NCBI GenBank assembly: GCA_903840415.1
Contig: CAIMFY010000003.1
Span: 1 to 45,715 of the forward strand
Length of the DNA: 45,715 nucleotides
Source: an uncultured Opitutia bacterium
GTDB taxonomy: Bacteria > Verrucomicrobiota > Verrucomicrobiia > Opitutales > Opitutaceae
Reading direction: 5' to 3'
Shown piece after piece: positions 1 through 45,715 of this stretch. The translations under genes and the position numbers were made by a program. Under the pieces are notes generated by a model, which was not told the DNA's origin, ran no database searches, and saw only the letters and a program-made list of their open reading frames with translations. Position 1 is the first letter of the stretch. The number at the start of each line of letters is the position of its first letter.

Positions 1-220
1 AATCGACCTTTGCCGACAGTTGTTTGGGGATCGAATTGAACTGCCGGGCCGTGATGCGGTGCTCGGTGATGAACCGGCGCTTGGCGTCGGTGAGCTTTTC
101 GCCTCGAGCGTAGAGCGCACTAAAGAGCAGGCGTTCGAGGCGCGAGAACAACGCGGCGCATTGCTCCAACGCCGGATCATTATCCGACGTCGTCAGCTTT
201 GCTTCCACGGTGATTGCCAT
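1..220 (-). CDS. Partial IS605 OrfB/TnpB-like transposon protein (N-terminus only)
   Basis: An open frame reads leftwards from the ATG at 220-218 and leaves the window after 73 residues without a stop, so only the N-terminus is visible. It starts MAITVEAKLT and contains a basic stretch, KRRFITEHRITARQFNSI (about residues 46-63), preceded by the helical segment CAALFSRLERLLFSALY. From memory, this pattern of a short beta lead, a helix with LERLLF, then KR.FI..H.ITARQFN is found at the start of OrfB/TnpB-like proteins of IS200/IS605 elements, whose relatives are RNA-guided nucleases. The catalytic RuvC-like part would lie outside the window, so activity cannot be judged. No neighbour on the same strand is seen. 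The family call rests on a short stretch and is tentative. Confidence 0.5.
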   Translation of the reverse strand, partial: MAITVEAKLTTSDNDPALEQCAALFSRLERLLFSALYARGEKLTDAKRRFITEHRITARQFNSIPKQLSAKVD

Positions 221-388
221 AGTGTTCAATTGCACACATTTAGGCGCAATGGCAAGATTTTCCGCTGTGTTGGACGGCAAAGTTTCGCGTTAAACGCCTA
301 CAAAAGCCCATGAAATCGGCTGCTGCTGGCAACCCTTCCGTCTGATGGGTTGCCTCGGCGCCTCGCTACCGGCAAACTGAATTGCGCT

Positions 389-45300: not shown

Positions 45301-45594
45301 ATGCGAGGAATTAAAAAGCGCTGGCTCACTCTGCCAGTGTCGCTGCTTGCGCTCGGCGTGTTTTGGTTCTGGCGGTCAACACGTTTTCAGGTCGAACGCG
45401 TGGTGATCGACGGCCACGCGATTGAGTTCGCGCGCCACGGCTCCGGCAGCCCGACCGTAGTTTTTCTCCACGGCGGTTTCGGCGGCGGGCCTAAACTAAG
45501 CTCGTGGTCTTCGCTCCAGCTGCGCATCGGCACTTCCTTGTTCAATTACACCCGACCCGGACAGGGCGGCTCGGAACCGTTCGAAAAACCATAG
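45301..45594 (+). pseudogene. Truncated alpha/beta hydrolase N-terminal fragment
   Basis: The 97-residue product begins with a membrane-anchor-like helix (MRGIKKRWLTLPVSLLALGVFWFW), then the opening of an alpha/beta hydrolase: VVIDGHAIEFARHGSGSPTVVFLHGGFGG with the oxyanion HGG. It continues FNYTRPGQGGSEPFEKP and stops. Normal members continue for about 200 more residues through the nucleophile elbow (GxSxG) and the histidine, none of which is present. The stop at 45592-45594 comes where homology ends, and hairpin-rich sequence unlike the gene begins within a few bases. I read this as a gene interrupted by an inserted element. A sequencing or annotation artefact is possible only if the rest is elsewhere. 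Confidence 0.7.
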
Positions 45595-45601
45595 GCTTTT
45601 A

Positions 45602-45694
45602 TCACAGCGAGCCTGTGAAGGCGGTTTGAGATAAAGAGCGAATGAGGCCGCGCGAACAGCGAGTGCGGCCGTTAATCTCCGGGTTTGCACCGGA
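45602..45694 (+). ncRNA. Candidate structured RNA, HEARO/omega-RNA-like, at the window edge
   Basis: Four stems lie in 93 bases. The first is a 6-bp hairpin (45602-45607 with 45613-45618). The second is a 5-bp closing stem (45628-45632 with 45675-45679). Nested inside it is a 6-bp stem (45646-45651 with 45665-45670) around GAACA. A 5-bp hairpin (45678-45682 with 45690-45694) follows; its first two bases are also needed by the closing stem, so the two compete or shift slightly. The run starts just after the truncated hydrolase. The spacing and unpaired GAGATAAAG and GAACAGC motifs recall, from memory, HEARO RNAs upstream of IscB genes. No gene follows within the window, and the family call is unproven. 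Confidence 0.35.
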
Positions 45695-45715
45695 CACAAT
45701 GATCGCCGCGTCGGT

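What the first reader, a model, noticed from the sequence alone, without database searches (positions are those of the whole stretch)
45575..45715. Hydrolase gene cut at the boundary of a multi-hairpin sequence resembling a mobile-element guide RNA
The alpha/beta hydrolase reading frame loses its homology at about 45590, and from 45602 the sequence becomes a dense run of hairpins with no coding pattern. This is what an IS200/IS605-type insertion bringing its own RNA would look like. In IscB elements the HEARO/omega RNA precedes the nuclease gene and takes its guide from the flank just 5' of the element, so here the guide would be roughly the last 15-20 bases of the hydrolase fragment. A nuclease gene would then start beyond 45715. 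The sequence shows the hairpins and truncation; the element identity is inference.
Basis: partly seen in the sequence, partly recalled or inferred. Interest (0 to 1): 0.62.

Follow-up and report, generated by a model that had tools for sequence, protein, structure and literature searches.

The report
Jumping gene ending inside a hydrolase
The hydrolase gene is split by one of about twenty copies of an IS607-type mobile element that carries an RNA-guided TnpB protein and, overlapping the end of that gene, its guide RNA; the element type is known, but this branch of TnpB is unusual.

Summary
The window is one whole contig, and both its ends lie inside copies of one mobile element. The hydrolase is interrupted at 45576/45577. 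Its other half is the end of contig C63; joined, the halves read in frame and align to a homologue with no gap at the joint. The sequence beyond is the right end of an IS607-type element read on the minus strand: the last 37 codons of tnpB and, overlapping them, the 3' half of a structured reRNA (about 250 nt in the aligned region). It is not IscB/HEARO. The fold has covariation support: 17 of 58 pairs change on both sides across 5 sequences. The predicted guide is the minus strand of 45575-45556.

This genome holds 22 right ends and 20 left ends, all at G-GG-T. In 19 of 20 left ends the tnpB start codon follows 115-116 nt in. No IS607 transposase exceeded its cut-off. No CxxC pair (zinc finger) was seen in 12 TnpBs read, and His stands at the RuvC-III Asp position in 9 of them. 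This is a new variant of a known kind. Activity is untested, and the one nearly complete tnpB found here has a frame break.

The parts
45301..45576 (+). 5' part of an alpha/beta hydrolase gene, 92 codons, cut by the insertion
   Evidence: joined to the flank of the left-end copy on contig C63 it reads through in frame and aligns over residues 15-163, with no gap at the joint, to a homologue in G005 (45.8% identity, E 1e-32; this half alone 33.7%, E 6e-5).
45577..45715 (-). right end of an IS607-type tnpB element, to the contig end
   Evidence: 22 places in the genome; uninterrupted relative G095:C13 with tnpA-tnpB; 22 of 22 right ends finish ...GAACGG followed by T.
45577..45578 (.). GG (CC on +) crossover dinucleotide shared by the two element ends (inferred)
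   Evidence: GG cannot be fully told from GT because G-GGT-T is common to both ends; G095 ends GG|C, which favours GG.
45602..45715 (-). 3' end of tnpB: 37 codons and the stop (45604-45602)
   Evidence: homologous to the C-terminal tail of the G095 TnpB.
45577..45715 (-). 3' half of the reRNA scaffold (aligned region about 250 nt), overlapping the tnpB end
   Evidence: covariation. In this half, columns 132/152, 135/149, 163/177 and 164/176 change on both sides.
45576..45576 (-). right-flanking nucleotide, T on the minus strand, probably read as part of the scaffold
   Evidence: T in 22 of 22 right ends here; role shown for ISXfa1 in PMC10711439.
45556..45575 (-). predicted 20-nt guide of this copy's reRNA, complementary to the hydrolase flank
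   Evidence: Position follows from the element boundary and known IS607 reRNA architecture; inference, no transcript data.
1..334 (-). second copy: left end of the element and start of tnpB (ATG at 220-218), running off the other contig end

Best explanation
The feature is the right end of an IS607-type mobile element that carries tnpB but no tnpA and has inserted into an alpha/beta hydrolase gene. Shown: both ends, the split gene, the target G-GG-T, the copy number, and a conserved RNA fold overlapping the end of tnpB. Inferred: the minus-strand transcript is trimmed to a reRNA of about 250 nt whose last 16-20 nt come from the hydrolase flank. TnpB bound to it recognises the uninterrupted hydrolase allele next to a (A)GGGT motif and cuts or holds it, so that copies lost by excision or met as empty alleles are restored or selected against. 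Movement itself needs an IS607 serine transposase supplied in trans, or lost since the expansion.
For: An uninterrupted relative (G095) has an IS607 TnpA at 183 bits against a cut-off of 110, followed by a TnpB-family protein. All 8 proteins of alignment A2 match the NCBIfam guided_TnpB and TIGR01766 models at E <= 0.001. This genome has 22 right ends and 20 left ends; the tnpB ATG lies 115-116 nt from the left end in 19 of 20. The base before GG is G in 20 of 20 left ends and the base after it is T in 22 of 22 right ends; published IS607 insertions go to GG with (G)GG preferred and no duplication (PMC6188088, passages). Of the two joints of the hydrolase halves tried, only the one that makes the empty site GGGT keeps the frame, and it aligns to a homologue with no gap at the joint. 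RNA fold: 94.6% of cells paired against 34-41% for slid controls; 17 pairs changed on both sides against 0-4 in the slid controls and a mean of 10.6 in shuffles, none of 500 of which reached 17.
Against: No transcript or activity data. The fold was derived from the alignment on which it was counted, and one of five measures (number of further pair types) is reached by 223 of 500 shuffles. The only nearly complete tnpB found in this assembly (C64) has a break in its frame; other copies run off contig ends or are truncated, so an intact copy is not shown. The usual RuvC-III Asp is His and no zinc finger is seen. P0001 scores far below the guided_TnpB cut-off (43 against 100 bits). No IS607 TnpA above cut-off is in the assembly. 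An AlphaFold run on one sequence was useless (pLDDT 38).
Confidence: 0.82

Rival explanations
1. IS200/IS605-type IscB element whose HEARO/omega RNA precedes the nuclease gene.
For: Insertion and hairpin-rich sequence at the edge of a broken gene.
Against: No HEARO match at Rfam's gathering score in the window, none at E<=10 in the stretch, none at E<=1 in the genome, none at E<=5 in three longer loci. No RRXRR domain above cut-off in the genome. The open frame runs towards the junction and is tnpB.
Confidence: 0.01
2. Same element, but its TnpB no longer cuts DNA: with His for the third catalytic Asp it acts as an RNA-guided DNA-binding protein that blocks or represses the sites its copies target, like TldR or Cas12m2.
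For: His at the RuvC-III position in 9 of 12 family members read, from Verrucomicrobia, Bacillota and Pseudomonadota. Cas12m2 with an HDD site binds without cutting (PMC10442227, passages). TldR seen only in a search listing with the start of an abstract.
Against: The first Asp and the Glu are kept in all 8 and all 9 proteins of the two alignments. In Cas12m2 it is the first Asp and the Glu that changed, and the third Asp was kept. The protein stays inside a multi-copy mobile element, which fits a retention nuclease better than a domesticated regulator. From recall, RuvC resolvases can use His at a comparable place.
Confidence: 0.25
3. A decayed, formerly mobile repeat: the copies are relics, the reRNA is no longer made, and nothing is guided.
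For: No tnpA above cut-off, a frame break in the C64 tnpB, a degenerate copy on C39 and a truncated one on C67.
Against: 13 of the 22 right ends (the window's included) are at least 97% identical to it over 140 nt, which suggests recent spread, and the fold is kept by paired changes between relatives.
Confidence: 0.2

Closest known systems
ISXfa1 (IS607, Xylella) TnpB and reRNA, PMC10711439
   Same: GG crossover, fixed right-flanking nucleotide, reRNA at the 3' end running past the element boundary, G-rich TAM (passages and section 25).
   Different: Here there is no tnpA in the element, the target is (A)GGGT, no zinc finger is seen in the TnpB, and the third catalytic position is His. ISXfa1 TnpB itself was not compared by sequence.
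ISFba1-type IS607 TnpB with RAGATH-18 reRNA, PMC11061315
   Same: IS607 TnpB guided by a structured 3' RNA with a 20-nt guide (sections 6 and 10).
   Different: No RAGATH-18 match here. The ISFba1 reRNA begins 13 nt downstream of tnpB; here about 225 nt of the aligned RNA overlap the reading frame. Published TAMs AGGAG and GAGGG, D-E-D site, about 390 aa on average, against 543 and 523 aa here (P0001, P0003).
IS607 of Helicobacter pylori, PMC6188088
   Same: GG target with (G)GG preferred and no target duplication (passages).
   Different: That element carries its own serine transposase gene.
tnpA-less tnpB elements (IS1341 group; definition recalled)
   Same: tnpB without a transposase gene, flanked by transposition ends.
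   Different: PMC9956272 treats IS1341 as a group beside IS605 and IS607, most with hairpins at the ends (passages); here the ends and target are IS607-type.
Thermus and cyanobacterial plasmid TnpB-related proteins (L150, L152, L153)
   Same: No zinc finger seen, same TS.IG...AAA..I.RR tail.
   Different: They keep Asp at the RuvC-III position, and no IS607 transposase is annotated in the stretches fetched around them.

Membership tests
IS607 family | TnpA serine recombinase in the element | tested here: not met
   None over cut-off in G000 (best 50 bits, cut-off 110); G001:C28 at 180 bits served as positive control. Relatives G095 and G001:C28 carry it. This copy is therefore called IS607-type or derived, not an autonomous IS607.
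IS607 family | Insertion at GG, no target duplication | tested here: met
   one junction pair resolved by the hydrolase frame, fixed flanking bases in 20 of 20 left and 22 of 22 right ends. A GT core is not strictly excluded.
TnpB (RNA-guided nuclease family) | Profile match and RuvC I/II residues | tested here: met
   TIGR01766 35.9 bits (cut-off 32) for P0001, but P0003 is below it at 22.8; both below the guided_TnpB cut-off of 100; 8 of 8 at E<=0.001. Asp and Glu conserved.
TnpB (RNA-guided nuclease family) | RuvC-III Asp and zinc finger | tested here: not met
   His in 9 of 12 and Asp in 3 of 12; at most one CxxC, none paired, in 12 of 12, of which two (C64, L145) are pieces of broken genes. 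The position is assigned by alignment within the family.
TnpB reRNA | Conserved structured RNA at the 3' end of tnpB, ending at the right end | tested here: met
TnpB reRNA | Transcribed, processed and bound by TnpB | not testable with these tools
   No RNA data; the balance of G-U and A-C cells (9 against 7 in the table) does not decide the strand.
RAGATH-18 reRNA | Match to the Rfam model | tested here: not met
   No Rfam family at E<=5 in L028, L081 and L054.
IscB / HEARO | HEARO RNA and RRXRR-bearing IscB | tested here: not met

The most novel reading that the evidence does not exclude
A distinct lineage of IS607 TnpB without a zinc finger and with an Asp-Glu-His RuvC site uses a long reRNA largely encoded inside its own reading frame. 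In this genus a derivative without tnpA spread to about twenty copies at (A)GGGT sites, so that RNA-guided retention is uncoupled from the element's own transposase.
Probability: 0.35. Interest if true: 0.62.

Novelty: new variant of a known kind. Interest (0 to 1): 0.45.

Why it matters
If the His-type site cuts DNA, it widens what a TnpB/Cas12 active site can be; if it only binds, it is another route from nuclease to RNA-guided repressor, still inside a mobile element. About twenty natural guides in one genome, each next to the same (A)GGGT motif, would make TAM, guide register and retention directly testable. The overlap of the scaffold with tnpB codons is a clean case of one stretch of DNA under protein and RNA constraint. 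It is also a warning that contig ends can be buried copies of one element.

Tried and rejected
HEARO/IscB: no match. RAGATH-18 or any other Rfam family: no match at E<=5 in three longer loci; the trpB, ceN22 and PK-BYV matches (E 5-10) are taken as chance. Energy of folding as evidence: weak. Structure prediction from one sequence: pLDDT 38, not used for a fold search. Scan of GTDB contigs with one protein: found only the G095 contig itself. Search of the order at E<=1e-40: 2 of 372 genomes; the strict limit excludes distant relatives, so this is a floor. Viral contigs: 70 stretches matched a pattern, none encoded a relative. Phages: 4 Thermus phage records at 27-28% identity. PDB by sequence: one match at E 0.22, not credible. 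Hydrolase orthologue in the sister species G001 for a true empty site: none at E<=0.001, so the junction rests on the reading frame and a distant homologue. RNA strand from G-U pairs: indecisive. A terminal helix was drawn by hand after seeing the sequences and is not counted. In print: the TnpB classification paper (doi 10.1073/pnas.2308224120, recalled) is not held, so I cannot say that this lineage is undescribed; searches listed no paper that I recognised as describing it, judged from listings, abstract starts and, for PMC10711439, PMC11061315, PMC9956272, PMC6188088 and PMC10442227, passages or sections only.

Full report
What the stretch is. The window is the whole of contig C3 of a 4.91-Mb, 124-contig genome. 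From 45576 to the contig end the sequence is a repeat: 22 places at 91-100% identity over 140 nt (the window's own included), each within about 175 nt of a contig end, with unique flank on the same side; a 23rd, on C39, is 74% identical over part of the query. The sister species G001 has 8 matching places. A search of 100 family genomes found matches in 6, one of them, G095:C13, across an uninterrupted element.

What the element is. In G095 (whose C13 corresponds to the MAG contig CAJCBL010000013.1, an uncultured Verrucomicrobia bacterium, by identical protein and contig length) the repeat is the end of a two-gene unit: an IS607-family serine transposase (NCBIfam NF033518, 183 bits, cut-off 110) followed by a TnpB-family protein of 543 aa. 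G001:C28 has the same pair, and G100 has it by sequence resemblance. The window's repeat is the 3' end of tnpB and the right end, on the minus strand. The frame stays open from the contig end to a stop at 45604-45602; in the longer C69 copy it is open for 95 codons.

The form in this genome lacks tnpA. Twenty left ends were found; in 19 of 20 the tnpB start codon follows 115-116 nt in, and in the twentieth the motif for the start was not matched. A G095 TnpA query found nothing (the tool notes that an empty answer alone shows little). The IS607 profile gave five matches in G000, all below cut-off (best 50 bits), while the same search found G001:C28 at 180 bits. One copy, on C64, carries tnpB almost to its end but with a break in the reading frame. 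The other copies run off contig ends, or are truncated as on C67, so the state of their tnpB is unknown. The window's own other end (1-334) is also such a left end.

The hydrolase is split. Among the 20 left-end flanks, one (C63, locus L104) continues the hydrolase when read in reverse complement. Joined with GG and the fixed G, the protein runs through the junction, and residues 15-163 align with no gap at the joint to a homologue in G005 (45.8% identity, E 1e-32; the window half alone 33.7%, E 6e-5; the C63 half alone 60%, E 8e-25). With only GG between, the frame is wrong. The joined frame itself ends at 236 aa, and the part after residue 163 has no significant match, so the C63 side may carry further damage or an assembly error. 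No orthologue was found in G001 at E<=0.001.

Target and guide. Left flanks: G before the GG in 20 of 20, and A before that in 14 of 20 (G in 4, C in 2). Right flanks: T after the GG in 22 of 22 here, in 8 of 8 G001 copies fetched, in G001:C28, G100 and the C39 copy, but C in G095. Further out the flanks look unrelated. Published IS607 insertions use GG with (G)GG preferred and no duplication (PMC6188088, passages). In ISXfa1 the fixed right-flanking base belongs to the RNA scaffold and a GGG motif is depleted (PMC10711439, section 25 and passages). By analogy I predict a TAM of (A)GGGT and a guide on the minus strand of 45575-45556.

The RNA. Five sequences (two divergent copies here, G095, G001:C28, G100) were aligned over about 250 nt before the right end, from a conserved motif that I chose as the start; the true 5' end is not known. 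RNAalifold gives 58 pairs. Counted on the alignment, 94.6% of cells pair, against 34-41% when partners are slid by 1-3 columns; 17 pairs change on both sides against 0-4; 0 of 500 shuffles reach the observed values of four measures, and 223 of 500 reach the fifth (number of further pair types). The structure came from the same alignment, which favours it. Four of the 17 lie in the part inside the window (columns 132/152, 135/149, 163/177, 164/176; the last is unpaired in this genome's copies). About 225 nt of the aligned RNA overlap tnpB. Single-sequence energies are not remarkable, and G-U against A-C cells (9 to 7) do not fix the strand; the strand is inferred from tnpB.

The protein. Relatives occur on plasmids: 63 of 72,556 records, 34 of them Thermus, 4 covering at least 80% of the query; the best are from Thermaerobacter, Pseudomonas, Rhizobium, Paraburkholderia, Brasilonema and Photobacterium. 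IS607 transposases are annotated next to the Pseudomonas FeN3W and Photobacterium copies. In 12 proteins read, none shows a pair of CxxC motifs; the place of the RuvC-III Asp holds His in 9 and Asp in 3 (Brasilonema, Calothrix, Thermus). Two of the 12 (C64 and Thermaerobacter) are pieces of broken genes. One fetched locus, Paraburkholderia L149, was left out because its frame is broken; 54 of the 63 plasmid records were not fetched. Whether His supports cleavage is open. In Cas12m2, a different change (HDD) goes with binding without cleavage (PMC10442227, passages).

Verdict. The kind is known; the tnpA-less expansion, the His-type site and the reRNA largely inside the gene make it a variant worth a test.

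Noticed in passing
L056 3237-3716 (G019): A tnpB whose 5' end is joined in one frame to its 3' part, the middle being deleted; much of the RNA-coding part is kept, but the right end itself appears lost.
   Followed up: partly
L054 624-1145 (G095) and L056 2069-2662 (G019): A further open frame directly upstream of and overlapping tnpA in two relatives; the two proteins do not look alike by eye.
   Followed up: no
L027 3523-3672 (G000:C39): A degenerate right end (74% over part of the query) that changes abruptly into what looks, from recall and by eye, like the end of a PIN-domain toxin gene.
   Followed up: partly
L082 (G000:C67): A copy truncated inside the contig: left end and the first ~100 codons of tnpB, then unrelated sequence.
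   Followed up: no
L058 1-141 (G001:C91): A fragment of the reRNA region, with the rest of the element missing on the tnpB side.
   Followed up: no
Left ends (e.g. window 218-334): The left end shares the motif TAGGCGTTTAACGC with the reverse complement of the right end of G095, a possible transposase-binding repeat.
   Followed up: no
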